From NCBI GenBank assembly GCA_019635485.1, contig JAHBZL010000029.1:1-64000 (forward strand): 64,000 bases of DNA, in the 5' to 3' direction. Under the pieces are notes generated by a model. The model did no database searches and had not been told where the DNA came from. It saw only the letters and a list, made by a program, of their open reading frames with translations. This DNA comes from Piscinibacter sp. (lineage in GTDB: Bacteria; Pseudomonadota; Gammaproteobacteria; Burkholderiales; Burkholderiaceae_C). Positions 38,195 through 61,727 of this stretch are shown here, piece after piece. Position 1 is the first letter of the stretch, and every line of letters starts with the position of its first letter. The translations under genes and the position numbers were made by a program.

Positions 38195-39424
38195 GTGCCT
38201 GACATCTTTCTTTCCTATCGGCGCAAGGACAGCGCCAGCGCCACCGGCCGGCTCGCCGACCGGCTGGAGGAGCACTTCGGCCCTGCGCGGGTGTTCCACG
38301 ACCACGAATCGATCCTCGCGGGGGACGACTTCGCCGAGGCGATCCACCGGGCGATCAACGTCTCGACCGTGGTGCTCGCCATCATCGGGCCGGACTGGCT
38401 CGACGCGCGCGATGCGCAGGGCGCGCGCCGCCTCGACGACCGGTCCGACTTCGTGCGGCTGGAGATCGAGTCGGCACTGGAGGCCGGCGTCGCGGTCGTA
38501 CCGGTGCTGGTCGAGGGGGCGGCGATGCCGACGGCCGCGCAGCTGCCCCGCTCGCTCGCCGCGTTCGCGCGCTGCCAGGCGGTCGAACTGTCGGACACCC
38601 GCTGGCGCTACGACGCGGACCGCCTGATCGCGATGCTGCAGTCGCGCTACGCGATCGAGTCGGTGCGGCCGATGCTGACCGAATCGACCGGGCAGACGGC
38701 CGCCCTCGGCCCCGCCGCGCGCCTGGCGCTCGACCTGCTCGAGCTCGCCACGCACCCGACCCGCCTGATCGCCCGCCGCCAGACCGGCCACGTGGTGGAC
38801 CACGTGCGCGCGTTCGTCTTCCTGCTCACCTGCCTGCTGATCGGCAACACGGCGCTGCTGATCGGCATGAACGTGCACCCGACGCCGAGCTCGATCGGCG
38901 GCACCGTCGGCGGAATCGTCGGCTGGCTGGCCAGCGGCGAACTGATCGGGCTGATCCTGATCACGCTGCTCGCGGTGCCGCTGACGCTCGCCTGGCGCGC
39001 CACCGGCCTGCGCATCGAGTTCCGCCAGATCACGCTGATCCTCGCGCACGTCTACGGCGGCGCCTGGCTCGGTCTCACCGGCGGCCTGCTGGTGCTGGGC
39101 TTCGGCGTGCAGATGGTCGATGCGACGCTGTTCGACCGCGTCGTCGCACTGCTGGGCGGGCGCACGCCGGACGCGGCGGCGACGCTGGCCGAACGGGTCG
39201 GGCAGGCGGAGCAGATGCTGTTCGGCGCGCTGCATGGCCCGGCGGGGGCGGTCGCCACCGTGACCGGGCTGACCTGGTTCATCACCGCGGTGTGGGCGGT
39301 GGTCGCCTGGGGATCGTTCCGCCTCGCGTTCGGCACGACGCGCCTGCGCGCCGCCGCGGCCACGCTGCTGTGGCTGGCGATGCTGGGCGCACTCGGCTGG
39401 CTGAGCTGGCGCCTGGCGCGCTGA
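38195..39424 (+). CDS. TIR domain protein with C-terminal membrane spans
   Basis: A 409-residue protein starting with GTG. Residues 1-~150 form a TIR-type domain (MPDIFLSYRRKDSASATGRL, DHESILAGDDF, DFVRLEIESALEAGVAVVPVLV). Glu90 in VRLEIESAL sits where TIR NADases have their catalytic Glu. Residues ~205-409 contain about five hydrophobic helices (e.g. ELIGLILITLLAVPLTLAW), somewhat like Yip1-family membrane proteins. It stands alone between pcaF and the convergent rocD; no Thoeris partner is nearby. It may be a membrane-tethered signalling or defence protein. Confidence 0.78.
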   Translation: MPDIFLSYRRKDSASATGRLADRLEEHFGPARVFHDHESILAGDDFAEAIHRAINVSTVVLAIIGPDWLDARDAQGARRLDDRSDFVRLEIESALEAGVAVVPVLVEGAAMPTAAQLPRSLAAFARCQAVELSDTRWRYDADRLIAMLQSRYAIESVRPMLTESTGQTAALGPAARLALDLLELATHPTRLIARRQTGHVVDHVRAFVFLLTCLLIGNTALLIGMNVHPTPSSIGGTVGGIVGWLASGELIGLILITLLAVPLTLAWRATGLRIEFRQITLILAHVYGGAWLGLTGGLLVLGFGVQMVDATLFDRVVALLGGRTPDAAATLAERVGQAEQMLFGALHGPAGAVATVTGLTWFITAVWAVVAWGSFRLAFGTTRLRAAAATLLWLAMLGALGWLSWRLAR

Positions 39425-51147: not shown

Positions 51148-52041
51148 ATGGACAGCAACCCCGCCGCGGCGTTCTACGCGGGCAGCGGCACCGCACGCGC
51201 GGTCGGCACGGCCTTGCGCCTGGTCGACCGCGTCGCTCCCAGCTGGGGCACGCGCAGCGCGCTGCGCCTGTTCTTCACGCCGCTGCCGTGGAAGTTCGCG
51301 ATGCGGCGGCCGATGCCGCGGCCCTGGATGACCCAGCGCTGGGCCTTCGAGGGCGTGACGCTGACCAGCTACCGGCGCGGCGACCTCGCCGACGAGCGGC
51401 CGGTGGTGCTGCTCGTGCACGGCTGGGCCGGCGGCGGCACGCAGATGCTCGCGCTCGGGGAGGCGCTCGCGGCGGCCGGCTACGACCCGGTGCTGCTGGA
51501 CCTGCCGGCGCACGGGCGCAGCGGCGGCTGGCGCAGCACGCTGCCGCAGTTCGCCCGGGCGCTGTTCGCGGCCGCGGCGCGGCTGGGTCCGCTGCACGGC
51601 GTCGTCGCGCACTCGCTCGGCGCGCTGGCGGCGGCGCGCGCCGCCGCGCGCGGGCTGCCGGTGCAACGCATCGCGCTGGTCGCGCCGTCGGCGCCGCCCG
51701 CGGCCTTCCTCGACTGGTTCGCCGGCAGCTTCGGCCTCGCGCAGGGACTGGCGGCACGCATGCGCGCGCAGATCGAGCGGCGCGAAGCGGTCGACCTGGT
51801 CGAGTTCGAGCCGGCGTGGCTCGGCGCGCGGCTGCAGCAGCCGGTGCTGGTGCTGCACGACGAGGGCGACCGCATCGCGCCGCCGGCGGCCGGCGCGCGC
51901 CTGGCCGCGTCACTGCCCGATGCGCGGCTGCACACCACCCGCGGGCTCGGCCACCGGCGCATCCTCGACGACGCGCAGGTCGCCGAGCGCATCCTCGAGC
52001 ACCTGCAGCCGGCGCGGCCGGCGGCCGGCGCCGCGCGCTGA
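51148..52041 (+). CDS. Alpha/beta hydrolase
   Basis: A 297-residue hydrolase. VVLLVHGWAGGGTQM is the oxyanion-hole strand. The nucleophile elbow reads GVVAHSLGAL, with Ser in AHSLG, and VLHDEGDRIAPP and GLGHRRIL carry the acid and His. The N-terminal ~75 residues are basic and may contact membrane. It should act on an ester or lipid-like substrate. It forms a two-gene unit with the microprotein under TetR control. Its last 132 bases overlap the convergent glycosyltransferase frame. Confidence 0.88.
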   Translation: MDSNPAAAFYAGSGTARAVGTALRLVDRVAPSWGTRSALRLFFTPLPWKFAMRRPMPRPWMTQRWAFEGVTLTSYRRGDLADERPVVLLVHGWAGGGTQMLALGEALAAAGYDPVLLDLPAHGRSGGWRSTLPQFARALFAAAARLGPLHGVVAHSLGALAAARAAARGLPVQRIALVAPSAPPAAFLDWFAGSFGLAQGLAARMRAQIERREAVDLVEFEPAWLGARLQQPVLVLHDEGDRIAPPAAGARLAASLPDARLHTTRGLGHRRILDDAQVAERILEHLQPARPAAGAAR

Positions 52042-53982
52042 CCACAGCGCGGCCAGCGCCACGCCGAAGGCACGGGCGAACCGGGCCGTGTCGAACAGCG
52101 GCAGCGCGGGCCGCTCGGCCTCGAGCCGCGCGCGCAGCATCGGCAGCGGCGAGCCCGGCGCGCTGAGCGCGAACGCCAGCGCCTCGTAGTCGGCCGGGCT
52201 GGCCGTGATCAGTTCGGGGAGCCGGGCCGCCTGCAGCAGGCTGGCGGCCACACGCGACGCGAAGGTGTCGCCGCGGCAGGTCAGCACCGGCACGCCGGCC
52301 CACAGCGCATCGCTGGCGCCGGTGTGCGCATTGCAGACGAAGGTGTCCAGGAACAGGTCGGCCGCGCGCAACCGCTCCAGGTGCGGCACCGGCGGCAGGC
52401 GCGGCGCGAACACCAGGCGATCCGGCTCGACGCCGGCCTGCGCCGCCCGCGCACGCAGCCGCTCCACCGCCGCCGCATCCGGTTGCAGCAGCCACAGCAC
52501 GCTGCCGGGGCGCCGGCGCAGCAGGTCCATCCAGACGGCCCACACCCCCGGCTCGAGCTTGGCCGGCGAGTGGAAGGCGCAGAACACGAAGGCCTGCGCC
52601 CGCAGGCCGAGTGCGGCGCGGTCCGCCCGGCCCTGCGGCAGCGGCCGGCGGTCGTCGTTGGCCTGGTAGCTGTGCGGCAGCAGCAGCAACGCCTCGTCGT
52701 AGTCGGCCGCATGGGACGGCGGCACGACCACCGGGTCGGCGATCAGCGCATCGATCCACGGCGCGCCCTGGGTGCCGGCAAAGCCGAGCCAGGCCACCTG
52801 CAGCGGCGCCACGCGGCGCGCGAACAGGCCCGGGCGCGCGTCGCGTGTCGGCCCGCCGAGATCGATCGCGATGTCGATCGACCGCTCGCGCGCCAGCTGC
52901 ACAGCGGCCTCGTCCGGCAGTGCACCGACGTCGAGGAAGTGATCGAAGGCGGCGCGCAGGCGTGCGCGCATCGGGTCGTCGGCCGGAGGGCCGAAAGCGA
53001 ACGCGGTCAGCTCGAAGGGGCCGCCGTGCAGCTGCTCGAGCAGGCCGACCGCAAGCTGCGCCGTCGCGTGCGCCCGGAAGTCCGCCGAGAAGAAGCCCAC
53101 CCGCAGACGCCCGTCGGGAGCCGGTGAAGGGATCGGACACGGCGGCCCGGCCACGCCGTTCAGCGTCGCCGCGAAGCGCCGCGCACAGCGCCGCTGCTGC
53201 GCGCGCGACAGCGGCAGGTGCAACGCGACGAACGGCGCGCAGACGGGCGCATCGGCGTCGATGCCGCGCGCGACGGCGGCACGGGACTCGTCCAGCCCGT
53301 CCCAGTCGCACAGGCGCAGCTTCGTGTGCAGCCAGCGGCCGAGCAGGAAGGGCCGGTCCGGCGCGAGTTCCAGCGCGCGGCGCTGCAGGGACAGCGCCTG
53401 CTCGCCATGGCCCGCCTGCAGTGCCGCATCGCCGAGCCGGGCCAGCGCGTCCGCCGCGCCGGCGCGGCTGGGCGCGAGGGCTGGCTGCAGCGCGAGCGCC
53501 CGTTCGTAGCTCGCCAGCGCCTCGGCCGGGCGGTCCAGCGCGAGCAGCGCGTTGCCGTGGTTGTGGTGGGCGGCCGCATCGCCCGGGTCCAGCGCCAGCG
53601 CCCGCTGCACGTCGAGCAGCGCATCGGCAGCACGGCCGCGGTCGAGCAGTGCCGCGGCGCGGTTGTTGAGTGCCTTCGGGTCGTCCGGCTGCAGCGCGAG
53701 CGCCCGTTCCAGGCTCACCAGCGCCTCGTCGGTCCGGCCCAGGTCGCGCAGCACCGCCGCGCGGTTCGACCAGGCCGGCGCCAGCCCCGGGGCGAGCGCG
53801 ACGGCGCGGTCCAGCCCGGCCAGTGCCGCGGCCAGCCGGCCCTGCTGGTAGTCGAGCACACCCAGCAGGTGCAGCGCCTCGGCGTGGTCGGGCGCGGCGG
53901 CGAGGACCTCGCCGTACAGCCGCCGTGCCAGCACCGCGTCCCCGCGCTGGTGCGCGGCGAGCGCCTGCGCGAGCGGCGCCAC
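51910..53982 (-). CDS. TPR-containing GT41 (OGT/SPINDLY-like) glycosyltransferase
   Basis: A 690-residue cytoplasmic protein. Residues 1-~210 hold about six tetratricopeptide repeats (e.g. GDAAAHHNHGNALLALDRPAEAL). Residues ~290-650 form a GT41 domain: LRVGFFSADFRAHATAQL, LQVAWLGFAGTQGAPWIDAL, and the UDP-binding segment CNAHTGASDALWAGVPVLT. GT41 enzymes add GlcNAc to Ser/Thr, or hexose to Asn in HMW1C. It starts with GTG one base after the caspase stop. The final ~44 residues overlap the convergent hydrolase and are probably an extension beyond the fold. Confidence 0.85.
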   Translation of the reverse strand: MAPLAQALAAHQRGDAVLARRLYGEVLAAAPDHAEALHLLGVLDYQQGRLAAALAGLDRAVALAPGLAPAWSNRAAVLRDLGRTDEALVSLERALALQPDDPKALNNRAAALLDRGRAADALLDVQRALALDPGDAAAHHNHGNALLALDRPAEALASYERALALQPALAPSRAGAADALARLGDAALQAGHGEQALSLQRRALELAPDRPFLLGRWLHTKLRLCDWDGLDESRAAVARGIDADAPVCAPFVALHLPLSRAQQRRCARRFAATLNGVAGPPCPIPSPAPDGRLRVGFFSADFRAHATAQLAVGLLEQLHGGPFELTAFAFGPPADDPMRARLRAAFDHFLDVGALPDEAAVQLARERSIDIAIDLGGPTRDARPGLFARRVAPLQVAWLGFAGTQGAPWIDALIADPVVVPPSHAADYDEALLLLPHSYQANDDRRPLPQGRADRAALGLRAQAFVFCAFHSPAKLEPGVWAVWMDLLRRRPGSVLWLLQPDAAAVERLRARAAQAGVEPDRLVFAPRLPPVPHLERLRAADLFLDTFVCNAHTGASDALWAGVPVLTCRGDTFASRVAASLLQAARLPELITASPADYEALAFALSAPGSPLPMLRARLEAERPALPLFDTARFARAFGVALAALWSARGAGRRPRRLQVLEDALGDLRVVEDAPVAEPAGGVQPRIGQ

Positions 53983-53983
53983 C

Positions 53984-55327
53984 TCAGCGCCTCGTTTCCA
54001 GCTGGCGCGGCGGCGTGTAGTTGTTGGCGCGCGCCAGGTTCAGGTAGCGCGAAGCCTCGGCGTCGCGCCGGTCGACGTTGCGGAAATGCTCGCTGAGCTG
54101 GTAGGCCGCGATGCCGTTGCCGAGGTAGGCCGCGAAGATCATCCAGCGCCCGCGGTCGCTGCGCTCGATCAGCGTCCCGGAGGCCGGCTGCGGCAGGCTT
54201 TCCGCGACCCGCATCGCGGCGTACTTGTCGCCGCGCACCGCGCGTTGCGCGTCCTCGGCCAGGCGCGGCGTGAGCTGGGCCGTCAGCGCGGAGACGTCCA
54301 GGTTCAGGCGCGCCTGCCGCGCCGCGGAGACGACCTTCTCGAGGTCGCCGATGCGCACCTGCGCGATGTCCGCCTGCTCGCCTTCGGGCAGCTTCTGCAC
54401 CAGCGCCTTCAGCTTGCCGATCGCCTCCTCGGGCGAGGCGGTGCTGCGCGCTGCTTCGAGCTCCGCGGCGGCCGGCGCCGCCTCGGGCTTGGGCGCGCTC
54501 GCCGGCGCGGCCGATGCGATCCACTTCGGGTCGCCGCTGACGTTGCTGGCCACCTCCGGTTCCTGCGCGTTCCGGCCGAAGGCCTTGACGATGCCCTCGA
54601 TGCTGTTGACCTTGCGCGCCACCTTGACACGCACCGTCTCGAGGGTCAGGAAGATCGAACGCGACGGATCGGTGACGTCCAGCTCCGACATCAGCGCCTC
54701 GGCGAACAGCGTGTAGCGCTGCGGATCGTTCGGCGCGAAGGCGCGCTTGCCCGGCCCGGTCGCGAAGACGACGTGGCAGCCGTCCGGCGGCATGGTCTGG
54801 TTGTAGCCCTCGGTCGGCGAGCGCGGCCGGTCCGGCGTGCGGCAGGCGTCGACCATGATCACCGTGGCGGCCGGCCCGGCGGGCCGGCTCAGCCGGGTGA
54901 ACACCTCGCGCTCCAGCGACAGGCAGCTGCGCGCCAGCTGTGCCGGCGCCGACTGCAGGTTGCCGCCGGCGGGCACGAGGAAGTTCTCGGCGTTCGACTG
55001 GAAGCCATGCCCGACGAAGTAGAACACCCCGGCGAGGCCGGGATTGGCGCCGATCGTGCGCTGCAGCTTGTCGAGTTCGGCCTGCACCTGCGCCACCGGC
55101 GGGTCGTGCAGCGCGACGGTTGCGAAGCCCATCCTCGACAGGCGCACCTCGAGGTCGGCGATGCACTTGCGCGCCGGCGGCAGGTTCTCGTCGGACGGGT
55201 TGTACGAGGTGTTGCCCACCAGCAGCGCCTGGCCGCTGGGCACGCGCTGCGCGGCCAGCGGCAGGGTCACCCCCAGCGCGGCGCCGGCCCCGCCCTGCAG
55301 CAAGCGCCGCCGCCGCATGCCCGTCAT
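53984..55327 (-). CDS. Exported caspase-like (peptidase C14) protein
   Basis: A 447-residue protein starting MTGMRRRRLLQGGAGAALGV, a twin-arginine-like export signal. Residues ~30-270 form a caspase/p20 fold with the dyad His107 (FYFVGHGFQ) and Cys162 (IMVDACRTP). A Pro/Ala linker (~285-310) leads to a helical C-terminal domain, possibly Sel1/TPR-like. It would cleave substrates in the periplasm. It overlaps the TpsA stop by ATGA and is followed one base later by the glycosyltransferase, so it may process TpsA. Confidence 0.87.
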   Translation of the reverse strand: MTGMRRRRLLQGGAGAALGVTLPLAAQRVPSGQALLVGNTSYNPSDENLPPARKCIADLEVRLSRMGFATVALHDPPVAQVQAELDKLQRTIGANPGLAGVFYFVGHGFQSNAENFLVPAGGNLQSAPAQLARSCLSLEREVFTRLSRPAGPAATVIMVDACRTPDRPRSPTEGYNQTMPPDGCHVVFATGPGKRAFAPNDPQRYTLFAEALMSELDVTDPSRSIFLTLETVRVKVARKVNSIEGIVKAFGRNAQEPEVASNVSGDPKWIASAAPASAPKPEAAPAAAELEAARSTASPEEAIGKLKALVQKLPEGEQADIAQVRIGDLEKVVSAARQARLNLDVSALTAQLTPRLAEDAQRAVRGDKYAAMRVAESLPQPASGTLIERSDRGRWMIFAAYLGNGIAAYQLSEHFRNVDRRDAEASRYLNLARANNYTPPRQLETRR

Positions 55328-58300
55328 CGGCAGCCGATCGCAGGCGCGTTCGCCCCGCCGCCGGCCGTGCACGACGCCGGCCGCGCCGCCGAGTCGATGT
55401 TGTCGACCGCCGGCGCCGCCAGGCCCGTCTCGAACACCAGCCCGCGCGACAGCTGCTTGCGGATGTTCTCCTTGCCGAAGCCGGCGGCCAGCGCCTCCGC
55501 CATGGCCCGGCGGAACGGCTCCTGCGCGTCGCTCACGCCCTGCAGGTAGCGCGTGAAGCGCACGTCCTCGAACGCGCCCTGCTCCACGGTCAGGATGCGC
55601 ACCGTCAGGCCCTGGCCATCGGAGCCGACCACCAGCGGCGAGACCGCGTAGTTGGCCGCATCCGCGCCGCCGAGCACGATGCCCGAGACGCTGACCGGCT
55701 TGCCGAGGCCCGGGTCGGGCGAGGACACGGCACCGACCGCGCCGCTCGCATCGAGCACCACGCTGTCGCCGGCGAGCACGCCGGGCAGCGCCGCGCCGTC
55801 GGTGTCGAGCTCGACCACCGTCGTGCCGTCGACGACCCGGTTGACCGCGCGGATGCCGGTGGCCTGCAGCGTCAGCGCACTGATGTTGACGGTCGCGTTG
55901 CTGGCGTCGGTCAGGCTGTAGTTCACCGCGTCGGCGCCGGCCAGCGTGACGCCGCTGATCGCCACCGGCTTCGCCGTGCCGACGTTCTTGTCCGCCATGG
56001 TGCCCGTAGCCCCGGCGGTGGACAGCGTCAATGCGTCGCCGGCGATCGCACCGGCCAGCGTGGCCGTCGAGCCGTCCAGCGCGACGGCCGTCGTGCCGTC
56101 GTAGGCCCGGTCCACCGCGGTGATGCCGGTGGAGGTGATCGCCAGCGTCGTGATCGTCACGGTCGGCGCGGCGGCCGGCGTCGCGAGGTAGTTGCCGCCG
56201 TCCGCGCCGCCCAGCGTCACCGTGCCGGTGACCGGCTTGGCGACGCCGACGTTCTTGTCCGCCATCGTGCCGGTCCCGCCGGCCAGCGTGACCGTGTCGC
56301 CGGCCAGCACGCCGGTCAGCGCGGCGGCCGCGGTGTTCAGCGCCACCACCGTGGTGCCGTCGTAGACGCGGTCGACCGCGGTGACACCGCTGGCCGAGAT
56401 CGGCCGCGGCGTGATGTTCACGGTCGGGTTGCTCGCGTCGGCGACGGTGTAGTTGCCGGCGTCCGTGCCCACCAGGGCCAGCCCGGTGACCGCCACCGCC
56501 TTGCCGGCTCCGACGTTCTTGTTGACCATGGCGCCGGTGGCGCCGGTGGTCGAGAGCGTCACCGTGTCGCCGGCGACCACGTTGTTGAGCGTCGCACCGG
56601 TGGTGTTCAGGCCGACCGCGGTGGTCGCGTCGTAGACGCGGTCGACCCCGGTGATGCCGGTGCTGGTCAGCGCGCGCGGCGTGACCGACGAGAGTGCGAT
56701 GCCCGGCCCGGCGGCCCGGTTGAAGCCGCCGAACGCGAGGCCGTAGTACTGCTCGCCGCCGCTGCCGGTAGCGACGACGTTCGTGCTGGCGGCGACCGCG
56801 TAGGCCTTGTCGGTGCCGACGTTCTTGTCGGCAAACGTGCCGTCGGCCGTCACGGTGTAGCCGCCCAGCGCGAGCGTGGGCCCGAGCGCCGTGGCCGGCG
56901 ACGTGGTCGTCCCGCCCGCCGCGGTGCCGGTCTGCGTGTACGTGAACGCGGTGCTGCCGTCGTAGACCTTGGTGACCGGCGCCTGGTCGGCCGGCGCCGT
57001 GGTGATGGCGCCGGTGGCGTTGGTGACGTAGACGTTGCCGGCCGCCGGCGTCGCGCCGGTCCAGCCGGCGAGCAGCACGTGGTTGATGTCGGCCGCGCCG
57101 GCGCCGAGCGCGACGGCGCCCAGGTCGTCCAGCGCGGCGTTGCTGGAACGGATGAAGAAGCGCCCGCCGGCGCCGGTCAGCAGCGCATTGCCGGTGTCGC
57201 TGGCGTCGATGAACCCCGCGCTCGTCAGGTCGATCAGCGTGCCGGTGGTGTTGATGCCGGCGGTGCCGAGCGTCAGCGTACCGCCGACCACGTTGACCCG
57301 CACGTCGCCGGCGCCGCGGCCGGTGAGGGTCAGCGGGCCCTGGGCGCCGAGGCTGATGCTGCCGGTCGTCGCGAAGTCCACCGGGCCGAAGAACTGGTTG
57401 GCCGTGTTGTCGAGCACCGCCGGCACGCCGCCGACGGTGATGATCTGCGTGTCGGCCGAGACGCTCAGTGCACCGCCGGCGCCGGCCACCTGCGCCAGGC
57501 CGCCGCCCGCGGCGGTCAGCGTCAGGTCGCCGAACACGGTGCCCTGCACGTTCATCGGCGTGCCCGCGGCGTTGTCGACCCGCACGTTCGCATTGCCGAC
57601 TTCCAGCGCGAGCAGCCCGATGCGGTTGTTCGCGCTCGTCAGGCTCAGGTCCATGCTGCCTTCGTTGATGAAGAAGGTGCTGACCTGGTTCGCCACCAGC
57701 CCGCCGGTGGTCGCCTCCGTCACGAAGCCGGACGAGGTGATCGACACCTGCCCGGCCGTGATGATGTTGTTGATGCCGATCGAGCTGCTCGCCAGCGACA
57801 CCGAGTTCAGCGACTGCAGCGGCGCGTTGATGCTGATCGAGTCGCTGAAGCCGTTGGCCGTGTCCGCCACCAGCGAGCTGTTGTTCAGCGTCACCGCGGA
57901 ACCGATCGAGATCGACTCGGCGTTCAGCGTCAGCGTCGTGGCCGCGCCGCCGGCCGCGACCGTCAGCGGCGCGGTCACGCTGATCTGGAACGTGGCCTGC
58001 AGCAGCACGTCGTTGGTGGCCAGCAGCGTCGCGACACGGTTGGCCGTGATCTGGCTCGCGAAGTTGCCCTGCGGGTCGGCGAACAGCACGTTGGCGACCA
58101 GGTCGTCGCCGGTGACGCCGTCGCCGTTCACGTCGGCCTGCGTGCCGACGATCAGCGTGCTCGGGTCCAGCAGCAGCGTGCCGCGCTCGCCGGCCGGCGC
58201 ACTCAGGTCGGCTTCGCCGAGAAAGTTCAGCGTCTGCTTGCCGGAGACCTCGGCGAAGCCGCCGTCGCCGCCCTCCGCCCCGCCGCGGGCAGACACCCGG

Positions 58301-59400
58301 CCCTGGAAGGTCGTTGCCTGGTCGGACCAGACGATCGCCGTGCCGCCGTCGCCGCGGCTGCCCGCGCTGACATCGATCGAGGCCTGCGGCCCGATCACCG
58401 TGACCTGCGCATTCGGCTCCGGCCCGCGGCCCTGCAGGTTGCCGCCCACCAGCACCGTGCCGCCGCCGATGTCGCCGGAGGCATCGATCGTCGCGCTGCC
58501 CAGCAGGCCGACGCGCTCGCCGAGAACCGACACCGCGCCGCCGCTCAGGCCCGCGCCGCCCGACGCGTCGAGCGTGCCGTCCACCTGCACGACACCGGAC
58601 GGCCCGCCGGACAGCAGGATCACGCCGTTACGCTGCTCAATGCTGCGCGCGCGCACCACGCCGCCGACTTGCATCACCGTGTTCAGCGCCGCGTCGGTGG
58701 CGGCTGCCTGAAGGGCCACGAGGCCGCCGTCGGCCGTGATGCTGCCGCTGTTCTCGAGCTTCGCCGCCACCGCGGCCGTGGGCACGCGGATCGACAGCAG
58801 GCCGGAGCCGGTCGGGTCGATCTCGACCGCGCTGCCGGCCGCGAGCGCCGCGGTACCGCCCGGCGCCACGATGCTGCCCGCGTTGCTGACCTGCGGCGCC
58901 GCCAGCACGACGTAGCCGCCGGGTGCGGCCTGCAGGCTGCCTTCGTTGCGCACCACGCCGCCGCTGCCGGACAGGCGCAGGTTGCCGGCCAGGAACTGGC
59001 CGACGTCGGCGTTCAGCGTCGTGGCCACCAGGGCGCCGACATTGACCTGCGACCCCGGCGCGAACAGCACGCCGTTCGGGTTCTGCAGGTAGACGTGGCC
59101 GTTGGCCGTCAGGCTGCCGAAGATCGCGCTCGGGTCGCCGCCGATCACCCGGTTCAGCGCCACCGAATCGCTGCCCGGCTGCACGAAGCGCACCGAATTG
59201 CCCGCGCCGATCGAGAAGCTCTGCCAGTCCGCCACCATCCGGGCACTGTTCTGCTGCACGACCATCGCCGTGCCGTTGCTGCTGATGCTGCCGCTGCCCT
59301 GCGTGACGACACCCCCCGTCGGCAGCGCCGCGGTCTGCGCGACGGCGGCGGCGGCGGCCCACGCCAGCGGCGTGACCAGGAAGACCTTGTTCCGTTTCAT
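55324..59400 (-). CDS. Two-partner secretion exoprotein (TpsA, filamentous haemagglutinin-like)
   Basis: A 1358-residue secreted protein. A Sec signal (1-~25) precedes the TPS domain, with VYLQNPNGVLF (NPNG at 107-110) typical of FHA/HMW1. A beta-helix middle follows (Gly/Ala-rich, ~130-800) and five YDG repeats (~810-1265). The tail has the only two cysteines in the protein, Cys1344 and Cys1357, 12 residues apart. At least 11 N-X-S/T sequons occur, many in the YDG repeats. The C-terminal Cys pair recalls the HMW1 surface anchor. It is exported by TpsB directly upstream. Confidence 0.92.
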   Translation of the reverse strand: MKRNKVFLVTPLAWAAAAAVAQTAALPTGGVVTQGSGSISSNGTAMVVQQNSARMVADWQSFSIGAGNSVRFVQPGSDSVALNRVIGGDPSAIFGSLTANGHVYLQNPNGVLFAPGSQVNVGALVATTLNADVGQFLAGNLRLSGSGGVVRNEGSLQAAPGGYVVLAAPQVSNAGSIVAPGGTAALAAGSAVEIDPTGSGLLSIRVPTAAVAAKLENSGSITADGGLVALQAAATDAALNTVMQVGGVVRARSIEQRNGVILLSGGPSGVVQVDGTLDASGGAGLSGGAVSVLGERVGLLGSATIDASGDIGGGTVLVGGNLQGRGPEPNAQVTVIGPQASIDVSAGSRGDGGTAIVWSDQATTFQGRVSARGGAEGGDGGFAEVSGKQTLNFLGEADLSAPAGERGTLLLDPSTLIVGTQADVNGDGVTGDDLVANVLFADPQGNFASQITANRVATLLATNDVLLQATFQISVTAPLTVAAGGAATTLTLNAESISIGSAVTLNNSSLVADTANGFSDSISINAPLQSLNSVSLASSSIGINNIITAGQVSITSSGFVTEATTGGLVANQVSTFFINEGSMDLSLTSANNRIGLLALEVGNANVRVDNAAGTPMNVQGTVFGDLTLTAAGGGLAQVAGAGGALSVSADTQIITVGGVPAVLDNTANQFFGPVDFATTGSISLGAQGPLTLTGRGAGDVRVNVVGGTLTLGTAGINTTGTLIDLTSAGFIDASDTGNALLTGAGGRFFIRSSNAALDDLGAVALGAGAADINHVLLAGWTGATPAAGNVYVTNATGAITTAPADQAPVTKVYDGSTAFTYTQTGTAAGGTTTSPATALGPTLALGGYTVTADGTFADKNVGTDKAYAVAASTNVVATGSGGEQYYGLAFGGFNRAAGPGIALSSVTPRALTSTGITGVDRVYDATTAVGLNTTGATLNNVVAGDTVTLSTTGATGAMVNKNVGAGKAVAVTGLALVGTDAGNYTVADASNPTVNITPRPISASGVTAVDRVYDGTTVVALNTAAAALTGVLAGDTVTLAGGTGTMADKNVGVAKPVTGTVTLGGADGGNYLATPAAAPTVTITTLAITSTGITAVDRAYDGTTAVALDGSTATLAGAIAGDALTLSTAGATGTMADKNVGTAKPVAISGVTLAGADAVNYSLTDASNATVNISALTLQATGIRAVNRVVDGTTVVELDTDGAALPGVLAGDSVVLDASGAVGAVSSPDPGLGKPVSVSGIVLGGADAANYAVSPLVVGSDGQGLTVRILTVEQGAFEDVRFTRYLQGVSDAQEPFRRAMAEALAAGFGKENIRKQLSRGLVFETGLAAPAVDNIDSAARPASCTAGGGANAPAIGCR
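55610..56985 (-). repeat. Five YDG/MBG-type tandem repeats within TpsA
   Basis: Units of about 87-90 residues each begin with a VYDG-type motif: KVYDGSTAF, RVYDATTAV, RVYDGTTVV, RAYDGTTAV and the degenerate RVVDGTTVV. They share AGDTVTLS, DKNVG and GNYTV/NYSLTDA segments. The DNA repeats are diverged, so they are old rather than a recent expansion. YDG/MBG repeats are extracellular stalk modules in adhesins. Confidence 0.8.
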
Positions 59401-59414
59401 CCGATGCTCCCCGA

Positions 59415-61136
59415 TCAGAACTGCTGGCTCAGCTGGAAGTAAGCCCGCGCGCGCGAGTCGTCGCTCTGCGCCTTCGTGTTGCCGCGCACCGCGACGTAGC
59501 CCTTGACGATCAGGCCGGTCGCGTTGCCGTAGGTCAGGCCCACCCCATGGCCGAACAGCTTGCGCGTGTTCTCGACGTCGCTGGGCAGAGGGTCGACGTG
59601 CTGGCGCCCCCAGCCGTAGTCACCGAACACACCGAGGATCCAGTCGCCCGGCAACGCCTCGATCGCCAGCGGCTTGCGGTACTCCCAGCCGACGATCAGG
59701 CCCGAGTCGCTCGGCGTCTCCGGGGCCGGGTAGGCCCGCACGCCGCTCGGCCCGCCGAGGCTGAACTTCTCGGAGCTGTCCAGGTTCTTGCTGGCGATCT
59801 GGGCCGCCGCGTTGAAGTACAGGTAGTCCTTGTTCGGCAGCACCTGCAGCCGCGAGCCCGTCAGCGCGAGCTTCCCGTAGCTGCCGGCGGACTGGTAGGT
59901 CTGCTGGTCCAGCACCTGTTCGTCGGGCGTGTCGAGCTCGAGCTTGCCGCCCACCAACGTCGCGGTGTAGTTGCTGATGCCGCCGCCGCCCAGCGTGTCG
60001 CGGAAGTCGCCCACCACGCCGAGCGTCACGTAGCTGGTCACGCCCTTCTTGATCTTCAGCGGGTAGGTGTTCACGCGGTCGTCGAACTTGCGCACGTCCG
60101 CGCTGCCGACGAAGAACAGGTTCGCGTTGCGCGAGCGGATCTGCGGGTGCAGCAGCTGGAAGGACAGCGCCGAGGCCGTGCCGTCGGCATCCAGCGGCTC
60201 GAGCTCGTCGCCGAGCCGGTACTTCAGAAAGCTCGCCGCCAGCCCGAACTTGGTGCCGCGCTCGTTGATCGGCGTGAGCCATGCGGCGCGCACGAACGCG
60301 GAGCCGGCATTGGTGGAGGCCTGCCCGCGCAGCGAGAACACGTCCCCGCGGCCGGCCAGGTTGAACCATTCGCCGCTCGCGAACACGCGGTAGCGGCCGG
60401 TGAAGATCGAGCCGCCGTTGTCCGCCTCCAGCGAATAGGCACTGCCCTTGGCGGCCGCGACCTTGATCGTCAGGTCGGCCTGGCCGACCTTGTCGCCCGG
60501 CGTCAGCGACGAGCTGATCGTGATGCCGCGCAGGTCGCCGAGCGTGAACAGCGCGCGCTCGATCAGCTCGCGTTCGGCGACCGGGTTGCCGCGCAGCAGC
60601 GCAATGATGCGGTCCATGAACTCGGGCGCCACCTTGACGCCCGGTTCGGACTCGATCTTCACCGCGCCGAGCCGGCCGATCAGCACCTGCAGCGTGACCG
60701 TGCCGTCGACGAGCTGCTGCTCCGGCACGTAGACCTGCGCGAGGAAGAAACCCTGGCGCTGCAGCGCGACCTCGACGTCCTTGGCGGCGTCCTCCAGGTC
60801 GAGCAGCGTCTTCGCGGCGCCGGTGTATTTCTGGAGCATCGGCAGCAGCGGCGCGGCGCGCTGCGCATCGATGCCGGCGATGCGGAAGGCCTTGACCGCG
60901 ACCGTCGGCCCGCCCGTCGTCGGGGCGGACACCGCGCGCGGCAGCACGAGTTCGGCCGGTGGCTTGCCGAGCACCGGCGCCGCCGGCGTCGACGGCTGGG
61001 CCTGCTGCAGCAGCGAGCCGGCGCTCGGCGCGTTGGGCGGCACCTGCTGCGCCAGCGCGGCGCCGGGCAACAGGCACAGGGCCAGGGCACGACGGAGGCC
61101 GGCCAGGCGGCGGGAATCAGCGGAATCGTCGGTCAC
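59415..61136 (-). CDS. TpsB outer-membrane transporter (ShlB/FhaC/HecB family)
   Basis: A 573-residue Omp85-type pore that secretes TpsA. A signal peptide (RRALALCLLPGAALA) precedes a Pro-rich linker, two POTRA domains (AVKAFRIAGIDAQRA..., GRLGAVKIESEPGVK) and a 16-strand barrel with the conserved FSLGGPSGVRAYP (VRGY/F-like motif) and C-terminal Phe. I use the GTG at 61136, because the ATG at 61211 lies upstream of the predicted promoter and would bury the signal peptide. tpsA follows 14 bases later with GGGGAG as ribosome-binding site. Confidence 0.9.
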   Translation of the reverse strand: MTDDSADSRRLAGLRRALALCLLPGAALAQQVPPNAPSAGSLLQQAQPSTPAAPVLGKPPAELVLPRAVSAPTTGGPTVAVKAFRIAGIDAQRAAPLLPMLQKYTGAAKTLLDLEDAAKDVEVALQRQGFFLAQVYVPEQQLVDGTVTLQVLIGRLGAVKIESEPGVKVAPEFMDRIIALLRGNPVAERELIERALFTLGDLRGITISSSLTPGDKVGQADLTIKVAAAKGSAYSLEADNGGSIFTGRYRVFASGEWFNLAGRGDVFSLRGQASTNAGSAFVRAAWLTPINERGTKFGLAASFLKYRLGDELEPLDADGTASALSFQLLHPQIRSRNANLFFVGSADVRKFDDRVNTYPLKIKKGVTSYVTLGVVGDFRDTLGGGGISNYTATLVGGKLELDTPDEQVLDQQTYQSAGSYGKLALTGSRLQVLPNKDYLYFNAAAQIASKNLDSSEKFSLGGPSGVRAYPAPETPSDSGLIVGWEYRKPLAIEALPGDWILGVFGDYGWGRQHVDPLPSDVENTRKLFGHGVGLTYGNATGLIVKGYVAVRGNTKAQSDDSRARAYFQLSQQF

Positions 61137-61178
61137 AGGGCCACCTGCCTTCGCGGTCGTCCAGGGAAAATCCGGTCG

Positions 61179-61207
61179 ACCATACGAAGCAGGCCGGGTG
61201 GTGTCAA
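61179..61207 (-). promoter_or_regulatory. Promoter of the TPS-caspase-glycosyltransferase operon
   Basis: On the minus strand, a perfect -35 TTGACA (61202-61207), a 17-base spacer and a -10 TATGGT (61179-61184). Predicted transcription starts near 61172, upstream of the tpsB GTG at 61136. It is among the best sigma70 matches in the window and the only one seen for the four-gene unit. Confidence 0.65.
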
Positions 61208-61247: not shown

Positions 61248-61727
61248 TCACACGCGTGCGGAGCGCCCCCAGGCCACCTTCAGCAGCAGTTCGACCAGCA
61301 GCGCGCGCTCCGCTGGCGAGAGGGCGCGCAGCGACGCCTGCTCCATCGTCGCGGCGGTCTTCTCGGCACGCTGCACCAGGTCGCGGCCGGCGCGGGTGAG
61401 GTGGATCAGCATCGCACGCCGGTCGCGCGTGCTGCGCACGCGCTCGACCCAGCCGGCCTCCACCAGCCGGTCGATCGTGATCGCCATGTTGGGGGCCGAC
61501 ACGTCCAGCGCCTCGCCGAGCTGCTTCTGGTTGACCTCCGGGTTGGCGGCGACCAGCACGAGCACCGAGTAGTCCAGCACCTTCAGCCCGAGCGGCCCGA
61601 GATGGCGCGCGAACACCTTGCGCAGTTCGAGCGCGGCGCGGCTGGCCGCATAGCCGACCAGGGTGGTGAGGCGCGACTGGTCCAGGCCGGCCGGCGCCTC
61701 GGGCGGAGCCGGAACGGGGGACTTCAT
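61248..61727 (-). CDS. MarR family transcriptional regulator
   Basis: A 159-residue winged-helix regulator. The DNA-binding part is VNQKQLGEALDVSAPNMAITIDRL, given here up to LGEALDVSAPNMAITIDRLV, and the wing contains RVRSTRDRRAMLIHLT. Its start overlaps the acyl-CoA dehydrogenase stop as ATGA, so it is made together with that enzyme and may sense its substrate. It lies just upstream of the TPS operon promoter and could also affect it; that is inference. Confidence 0.92.
   Translation of the reverse strand: MKSPVPAPPEAPAGLDQSRLTTLVGYAASRAALELRKVFARHLGPLGLKVLDYSVLVLVAANPEVNQKQLGEALDVSAPNMAITIDRLVEAGWVERVRSTRDRRAMLIHLTRAGRDLVQRAEKTAATMEQASLRALSPAERALLVELLLKVAWGRSARV

What the first reader, a model, noticed from the sequence alone, without database searches (positions are those of the whole stretch)
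51910..61207. TPS adhesin operon with a caspase-like protein and a GT41 glycosyltransferase
One minus-strand unit with a strong promoter encodes TpsB, a 1358-residue TpsA, an exported caspase-fold peptidase and a TPR-GT41 glycosyltransferase, with gaps of 14 bases, an ATGA overlap and 1 base. GT41 next to a TPS pair is the layout of Haemophilus HMW1A/B/C (known: HMW1C is a GT41 enzyme that modifies the adhesin in the cytoplasm). The caspase-like gene between them is unusual. It suggests a pathway of cytoplasmic glycosylation, secretion, and periplasmic or surface proteolysis or release. That coupling is inference.
Basis: partly seen in the sequence, partly recalled or inferred. Interest (0 to 1): 0.8.

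Follow-up and report, generated by a model that had tools for sequence, protein, structure and literature searches.

The report
Adhesin operon with its own caspase
A bacterium related to Piscinibacter carries a large exported adhesin whose operon also encodes an exported caspase-like protease and a sugar-adding enzyme; in relatives the caspase goes with one kind of adhesin tail, which suggests that it cuts that tail, while the sugar enzyme is a local extra.

Summary
The four-gene operon is real: tpsB, tpsA, an exported C14 caspase and a TPR-GT41 glycosyltransferase, with the stated gaps. It is a unit: three Piscinibacter genomes carry it at one site between marR and an abhydrolase gene, and three others show that site empty. 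The HMW1C comparison fails at enzyme level: the GT41 is OGT-like, TpsA shows no sequon enrichment, and GT41 accompanies the caspase in 3 of 32 loci.
The stronger result concerns the caspase. Full-length homologs keep a His/Cys dyad (32 of 32). A long TpsA-like gene lies directly upstream in 27 of 32 loci, often with a possible 4-base overlap; 15 of 32 loci lie near type VI secretion genes. All 27 TpsA ends share a motif with a terminal cysteine pair. In 299 family genomes, the 18 with a full-length caspase are exactly the 18 with this tail; in 300 order genomes, 3 and 3. Three Limnobacter-type genomes, where the caspase is not beside tpsA, have the tail elsewhere.
Best reading: an Arg/Lys-specific periplasmic caspase that cuts the cysteine-anchored tail to release or mature the adhesin, analogous to LapG and CdrA. 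Cleavage and glycosylation are inferred, not shown.

The parts
61179..61207 (-). sigma-70-like promoter (TTGACA-17-TATGGT), between marR and tpsB
   Evidence: alignment with two orthologous loci
59415..61136 (-). tpsB, outer-membrane transporter (POTRA_2 + ShlB), GTG start
   Evidence: 77-79% identical orthologs
55324..59400 (-). tpsA, 1358-residue exoprotein
58585..59328 (-). TPS secretion domain of TpsA (residues 25-272)
   Evidence: PF05860
56176..56412 (-). best of five YDG repeat stretches of TpsA (residues 997-1075)
   Evidence: PF18657
55327..55551 (-). C-terminal hook motif of TpsA (last 75 residues), shared by the caspase-linked TpsA proteins
55330..55371 (-). terminal cysteine pair of TpsA (residues 1344 and 1357), its only cysteines
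53984..55327 (-). exported caspase (Peptidase_C14), twin-arginine leader, helical C-terminal domain; ATGA overlap with tpsA
55007..55009 (-). catalytic His107 codon of the caspase
   Evidence: invariant
54842..54844 (-). catalytic Cys162 codon of the caspase (DACR motif)
   Evidence: invariant
51910..53982 (-). TPR-GT41 glycosyltransferase, OGT-like, GTG start, no leader seen by eye
61248..61727 (-). marR gene: upstream border of the cassette; may also regulate it (inference)
51148..52041 (+). convergent abhydrolase gene: downstream border of the cassette

Best explanation
A two-partner-secretion system with its own exported caspase. TpsA passes the inner membrane and then TpsB, and is held at the surface by a short C-terminal tail with a terminal cysteine pair that stays on the periplasmic side, as in HMW1 and CdrA. 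The caspase, probably translated from the same message and exported by a twin-arginine leader (Tat or Sec), acts in the periplasm and cuts TpsA after a basic residue in or near this conserved tail, so that the adhesin is released or matured. In Piscinibacter a cytoplasmic OGT-like GT41 was added to the operon and probably puts single sugars on Ser/Thr of TpsA before export. Shown here: the genes, the operon as a unit, the conserved dyad, the predicted caspase fold, the pairing of caspase and tail, the cysteine pair. Inferred: periplasmic location, cleavage, its site and effect, and the GT41 target.
For: Operon unit: same four genes in 3 Piscinibacter-genus genomes, empty site in 3 others; dN/dS below 1 for all four genes in all three pairs. 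Caspase: Pfam C14, His and Cys in 32 of 32 rows, AlphaFold model (mean pLDDT 77; the five models 56-77) closest to MALT1 and caspases, Asp two residues before the Cys in 32 of 32, as in MALT1. Coupling: 27 of 32 loci have a long TpsA-like ORF directly upstream, 13 of 27 with a start codon that gives a 4-base overlap. Pairing: in 299 family genomes the 18 with a full-length caspase are the same 18 with the tail, 20 matches each; in 300 order genomes, 3 and 3. Test outside the model: Limnobacter-type genomes G003, G594 and G595 have the caspase away from tpsA but carry the tail elsewhere, and no such row was in the tail model; five genomes reached through other caspases have no tail. Cysteines: beyond residue 171 of the ORF stretch read, the terminal pair is the only one in 27 of 27. 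A basic residue stands one or two places before the invariant Glu-Asn of the tail in 30 of 30 tails, the Limnobacter ones included.
Against: No cleavage, localisation or glycan data. Strict pairing could reflect inheritance as one block rather than enzyme and substrate; it is clustered in one family. 12 of the 18 family genomes gave rows to the tail model. 12 of the 27 upstream ORFs are cut before their N-terminus and are called TpsA only by the shared tail. No single cleavage site is fixed: the basic residue before the invariant Gly (RLR-x-G) is present in 26 of 30 tails but missing in L161 and in all three Limnobacter tails. In G003 and G595 the tail-bearing ORF is short (520-607 and 263-313 residues) with no tpsB match in the stretch; only G594 shows a tpsB-tpsA pair. 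The Asp before the Cys is also present in the three comparison caspases, so it is not special to this family. The tail may serve TpsB anchoring alone. No sequon or Ser/Thr enrichment marks the GT41-linked TpsA.
Confidence: 0.55

Rival explanations
1. The conserved TpsA tail is only a TpsB anchor, and the caspase cuts elsewhere in TpsA (for example an N-terminal pro-piece, as in HMW1, whose residues 69-441 are cleaved off) or trims misfolded TpsA in the periplasm.
For: HMW1 loses an N-terminal pro-piece (PMC3983070, passages). Four Aquabacterium/Leptothrix-type genomes have short ORFs with two partial hook motifs; in the two read these follow an orphan tpsB with no caspase match in the stretch, which fits an anchoring role of the motif.
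Against: The tail, not just any TPS system, pairs with the caspase: 151 of 300 order genomes have a ShlB match, but only 3 have full-length caspase and tail.
Confidence: 0.25
2. The caspase is a stress or cell-death protease, or an effector, that merely shares the promoter; TpsA is not its substrate.
For: Bacterial caspase homologs lie in very diverse operons (PMC3501461, section 13); 15 of 32 loci lie near type VI secretion genes.
Against: Adjacent arginines in a leader-like N-terminus in 30 of 32, 4-base overlaps with tpsA, and co-occurrence with the tail even where unlinked.
Confidence: 0.15
3. HMW1A/B/C-type system: the GT41 is an HMW1C equivalent that N-glycosylates TpsA and so protects it, with the caspase as an accessory.
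For: Same broad enzyme family GT41, adjacency, terminal cysteine pair as in HMW1.
Against: TPR repeats and best solved matches human OGT and XcOGT; no HMW1C-specific domain in the Pfam scan; sequons 11, 16, 16 against shuffles of 12.6, 10.9, 11.5, only 5 shared by all three.
Confidence: 0.08
4. The GT41 is a passenger of the operon with another target (flagellin, the caspase, or an unrelated cytoplasmic protein).
For: GT41 is common in the family (88 of 170 genomes at E up to 1e-40), in places beside flagellin (7 of 29 inspected loci); only 3 of 32 caspase loci have it.
Against: Kept in all three operons under purifying selection (dN/dS 0.26-0.58). It and TpsA diverge faster than TpsB and the caspase between the window and the other two species, which would fit enzyme and substrate changing together but may be weak constraint.
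Confidence: 0.4

Closest known systems
CdrAB-LapG of Pseudomonas aeruginosa
   Same: TPS adhesin held by a C-terminal cysteine hook and released by a periplasmic cysteine protease near the C-terminus (passages of PMC11898600, PMC7616799, PMC5422565)
   Different: LapG is a transglutaminase-like cysteine proteinase (PMC4694147 passages) whose activity follows c-di-GMP, and the review places maturation protease genes outside TPS operons; here a caspase-fold protease is encoded directly after tpsA, and LapD-type control was not sought
HMW1A/HMW1B/HMW1C of Haemophilus influenzae
   Same: TPS pair plus a GT41 enzyme in one operon; adhesin tethered through two C-terminal cysteines (PMC3983070 passages)
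   Different: HMW1C has an AAD fold instead of TPR and modifies Asn; the GT41 here is OGT-like, sequons are not enriched, and there is a caspase gene
Caspase-like processing domains of polymorphic toxins
   Same: caspase-fold peptidases proposed to process exported toxins, with a T5SS case listed (PMC3482391 passages)
   Different: there the caspase is a domain inside the toxin; here it is a separate exported protein and no toxin domain was identified in TpsA
MALT1 paracaspase and bacterial orthocaspases/metacaspases
   Same: caspase fold, His-Cys dyad, Asp two residues before the catalytic Cys; orthocaspases cleave after basic residues (abstract of PMC6426788 in listing)
   Different: exported, with its own helical C-terminal domain, and tied to a TPS adhesin
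FlmG and other TPR glycosyltransferases of flagellin
   Same: TPR domain plus GT-B-like domain, cytoplasmic O-glycosylation (PMC7591256, abstract start, passages)
   Different: this one lies beside a TPS adhesin; two other GT41 genes of the same genome lie beside flagellin
FhaB/FhaC with SphB1 of Bordetella
   Same: proteolytic maturation of a TpsA (PMC5422565 passages)
   Different: SphB1 is a subtilisin-type autotransporter encoded outside the fha locus

Membership tests
Two-partner secretion (type Vb) | TpsB with POTRA and ShlB/FhaC barrel | tested here: met
   PF08479 and PF03865 above cut-off
Two-partner secretion (type Vb) | TpsA with N-terminal TPS domain | tested here: met
   PF05860 1.8e-35, TIGR01901
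Two-partner secretion (type Vb) | TpsB-dependent export of TpsA | not testable with these tools
   needs experiment
HMW1C-type adhesin glycosylation | GT41 enzyme of the HMW1C subfamily (AAD instead of TPR) | tested here: not met
   TPR repeats; best solved matches OGT and XcOGT
HMW1C-type adhesin glycosylation | adhesin rich in N-X-S/T sequons | tested here: not met
   z = -0.5, 1.7, 1.5 in the three GT41-linked TpsA proteins; the only strong excess (z 4.7) is in L054, which has no GT41
HMW1C-type adhesin glycosylation | C-terminal cysteine pair that tethers the adhesin | tested here: met
   pair present; tethering itself not tested
CdrA/LapG-type adhesin release | TPS adhesin with C-terminal cysteine pair | tested here: met
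CdrA/LapG-type adhesin release | LapG-family (transglutaminase-like) protease | tested here: not met
   protease is C14 with predicted caspase fold
CdrA/LapG-type adhesin release | c-di-GMP receptor (LapD) control | not tested
   no search for LapD or LapG was run
Peptidase C14 (caspase/paracaspase/orthocaspase) | His-Cys dyad and caspase fold | tested here: met
   32 of 32 rows; Foldseek to MALT1 3.9e-11
Peptidase C14 (caspase/paracaspase/orthocaspase) | cleavage after Arg/Lys | tested here: inconclusive
   Asp two residues before the Cys in 32 of 32; its link to specificity is recalled; activity not tested
GT41, OGT/SPINDLY branch | TPR repeats plus GT41 catalytic domain with OGT catalytic residues | tested here: met
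   which aligned residues are catalytic in human OGT is recalled

The most novel reading that the evidence does not exclude
A distinct class of two-partner secretion in Burkholderiales in which an operon-encoded, exported paracaspase is the dedicated maturase or sheddase of giant cysteine-anchored adhesins, often sited in type VI secretion gene clusters, with a Piscinibacter branch that lies apart from such clusters and gained an O-glycosyltransferase tuning the cut. It would give a bacterial caspase family a substrate predicted from its own operon.
Probability: 0.45. Interest if true: 0.78.

Novelty: new variant of a known kind. Interest (0 to 1): 0.62.

Why it matters
[quoted passage not shown] Here is a protease gene overlapping tpsA and pairing one to one with a particular TpsA tail in the genomes searched, which makes the question directly testable. 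It also offers a candidate natural substrate for a bacterial caspase family, and a possible link between large adhesins and type VI secretion clusters.

Tried and rejected
HMW1C identity of the GT41: rejected on domain layout and sequon counts. GT41 as a general partner of TPS: not supported, 3 of 32 caspase loci and 0 of 29 inspected GT41 loci outside the window. Those 29 are the loci returned besides the window's own, out of a longer match list; their flanks are about 1.5 kb, and the TpsA marker covers only the TPS domain, so a TpsA end could be missed. A position cross-check of PF13844 and PF03865 matches over 300 order genomes could not be completed because both match lists were cut. The whole-genome caspase and tail searches score at most 5 and 19 candidates per genome in the samples, so second copies could be missed. 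My ORF caller failed on the lower-GC locus L040 with the window's codon table and was retrained. In the caspase tree the window clade sits on a very long branch, so its place is unsure; I used the tree only for the family's separateness from three other caspases. VIA-align was not available. A first idea that the cut lies in RLR-x-G was weakened on recount: 26 of 30 tails have a basic residue there, the Limnobacter tails do not. Literature: no paper with a caspase gene in a TPS operon was seen in the listings of searches of the open library; several listings were capped (25 of 46, 20 of 78, 15 of 172 and 10 of 12 shown), one search returned none. PMC8929069 names both gene kinds in Janthinobacterium but no linkage in the passages seen; section 13 of the 2012 survey of caspase operons names no TPS genes. 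Subscription papers are largely not in the library. Papers cited by passages or one section were not read whole.
Full report
What is there. On the minus strand, tpsB (61136-59415), tpsA (59400-55324), a caspase gene (55327-53984) and a GT41 gene (53982-51910) follow each other with a 14-base gap, an ATGA overlap and a 1-base gap. Pfam confirms each part. A promoter-like site at 61207-61179 is the only one found in the 12.5-kb scan (0.2 expected); the same scan lists 7 terminator-like sites (3.5 expected), three on the minus strand inside genes of the unit. The promoter is largely kept in two orthologous loci.

The operon is a unit. P. defluvii (L046) and P. caeni (L047) carry the same four genes in the same place, between acyl-CoA dehydrogenase-marR and a convergent abhydrolase gene; identity is 80-82% for the caspase, 77-79% for TpsB, and about 65% for TpsA and GT41. 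Of 8 genomes of the genus searched, 3 have the window-type tpsB and 5 have no tpsB match. All 8 have a close marR. In 3 of the 5 (L135, L136, L137) marR is directly followed by the abhydrolase gene: an empty site. In L138 marR adjoins the methionine-synthase-like gene, and in L139 no border gene was seen within the flank. All four genes are under purifying selection (dN/dS 0.18-0.68, simple counting method). TpsA and GT41 change fastest between the window and the other two (0.68 and 0.56-0.58), the caspase and TpsB slower (0.29-0.37). This could be co-change of enzyme and substrate or weak constraint.

The caspase family. In 300 order genomes 41 have some caspase match, but only G000, G003 and G058 have full-length ones. 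G000 itself has a second, 33% identical full-length caspase, again directly behind a tpsA gene (3419 residues) and a tpsB gene, and beside type VI secretion genes tssA and tssB. Further loci came from named genomes and from 299 genomes of the family. I inspected 32 different loci with a full-length caspase. In 27 a long TpsA-like ORF lies directly upstream; 15 of these 27 show all or part of the TPS domain, and 12 are cut before their N-terminus and are recognised by the shared tail only. In 13 of 27 a start codon gives a 4-base overlap with the tpsA stop, and in L046 and L047 the overlap is 1 base. In 4 Limnobacter-type loci (L055, L058, L059, L067) the gene upstream is the type VI gene clpV instead, and one locus (L153) is cut by the contig end. 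Type VI genes, checked by Pfam for representatives, were seen within the inspected stretch in 15 of 32 loci (a weak kinase match in L153 is not counted). GT41 was seen in 3 of 32, all Piscinibacter.

All 32 keep the His and the Cys in an Asp-Ala/Ser-Cys-Arg setting, and the family separates from three other caspases with full support. With the start codons I chose, 30 of 32 have adjacent arginines near the N-terminus (not L058; L153 is truncated), a Tat-like leader in my reading; no signal predictor was available. The AlphaFold model (mean pLDDT 77; the five models 56-77) is closest to human MALT1 and to caspases, as is the sequence to MALT1. The C-terminal third is all helical and not named by Pfam.

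The TpsA tail. The last 75 residues of caspase-linked TpsA proteins share a motif (consensus VRTENVxxRLRxGVIAEVGxGRPAT...C...C; 21 of the 27 rows were aligned). Invariant columns include Glu-Asn, Leu, Gly, Glu, Gly, Pro and both cysteines. In all 27 ORFs the terminal cysteine pair is the only one beyond residue 171 of the stretch read; 14 of the 27 are open at their 5' side, and the longest stretch read is 4321 residues. 18 of 27 have exactly two cysteines in all; together 70 in 67,880 residues against 0.9% in the other window genes. HMW1 is held at the surface through such a pair, and CdrA is thought to be.

Pairing of caspase and tail. In the 299 family genomes, 20 have a caspase match at E up to 1e-20. 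18 of these are full length (20 matches); 2 (G417, G579) are partial, as is a second match in G492. The tail model finds 20 matches in 18 genomes, exactly the same 18; 19 of the 20 lie within 0.3 kb upstream of the caspase match, and in G564 the two are on different contigs, both at contig ends. In 300 order genomes strong tail matches are in G000, G003 and G058, the same three as for the caspase (two further matches near E 0.008 are short and weak). The search is not fully independent: 12 of the 18 family genomes, and G058, gave rows to the model. Cases outside the model are 6 family genomes and three Limnobacter-type genomes. In G003 the tail lies about 170 kb from the caspase on one contig; in G594 and G595 it is on another contig. 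G594 has a tpsB-tpsA pair there, while in G003 and G595 the tail-bearing ORF is short and without a tpsB match in the stretch, next to type VI genes. Five genomes that were reached through other caspases show no tail. For comparison, 151 of 300 order genomes have a ShlB match, so the pairing concerns one branch of TPS systems, not TPS in general.

How it most likely works. The tail is the part that should remain on the periplasmic side when TpsA is at the surface, and an exported protease of the caspase fold is probably made from the same message. The simplest model is cleavage of the tail by the caspase, releasing or maturing TpsA, like LapG and CdrA. The Asp two residues before the catalytic Cys predicts a basic P1 residue (recalled rule; the comparison caspases have it too). 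A basic residue stands one or two places before the invariant Glu-Asn in 30 of 30 tails read, and before the invariant Gly in 26 of 30, not in L161 and the three Limnobacter tails. The first is therefore the better candidate, but no site is established and none of this has been shown biochemically.

The GT41. It has TPR repeats and an OGT-type catalytic domain; best solved matches are human OGT and XcOGT. HMW1C differs by its N-terminal fold. TpsA has 11, 16 and 16 sequons in the three species against 12.6, 10.9 and 11.5 in shuffles, five shared by all three, and Ser+Thr 18-20%, within the 17-26% of caspase-linked TpsA proteins without GT41; the only strong sequon excess (z 4.7) is in L054, without GT41. 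In 170 family genomes, 88 have a GT41 match at E up to 1e-40; of 29 inspected loci none shows TPS or caspase markers in its flanks and 7 show flagellin. The same genome has two more GT41 genes beside flagellin. So the GT41 looks like a Piscinibacter addition; O-glycosylation of TpsA before export is plausible from context but unproven.

Known or new. TPS, caspases, GT41 enzymes and periplasmic release of a TPS adhesin are all known, and caspase domains inside exported toxins have been described (PMC3482391 passages). What I did not see in print (listings; open library only, several lists capped) is a caspase gene in a TPS operon. The 2017 review states that maturation protease genes appear not to be part of TPS operons. 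I therefore call it a new variant of a known kind, with the caspase-tail pair, not the GT41, as the main point.

Noticed in passing
L166 and L167 (also G598 C40, G600 C13): In four Aquabacterium/Leptothrix-type genomes short ORFs (182-215 aa) carry two partial copies of the TpsA hook motif; in the two read (L166, L167) they follow an orphan tpsB and begin with a leader-like stretch. Function unknown; possibly a plug, decoy or remnant.
   Followed up: partly
L039 (G000 C23), L144, L145: Three Piscinibacter-genus genomes have a second TPS system divergent from a type VI secretion cluster; in the window's genome it has its own caspase and a small lipoprotein-like ORF downstream, with a similar ORF behind the caspase in L164.
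   Followed up: partly
L042 5702-11569 (G000 C26): Two tandem GT41 genes and a GT2 gene lie beside a flagellin gene, probably a flagellin glycosylation set.
   Followed up: no
L055, L058, L059, L067: In Limnobacter-type loci the caspase follows clpV inside a type VI cluster, with a lipoprotein-like gene further downstream.
   Followed up: partly
L165 11219-12781 (G003) and L169 10080-10871 (G595): The tail-bearing ORFs of two Limnobacter-type genomes are short, with no tpsB match in the stretch and type VI genes beside them; they may be remnants or assembly breaks.
   Followed up: no
38195-39424: N-terminus of the predicted protein looks like a TIR domain (seen by eye).
   Followed up: no
51910-52041: The 3' end of the GT41 gene overlaps the convergent abhydrolase gene by 132 bases; a similar overlap occurs in L046 and L047.
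   Followed up: no
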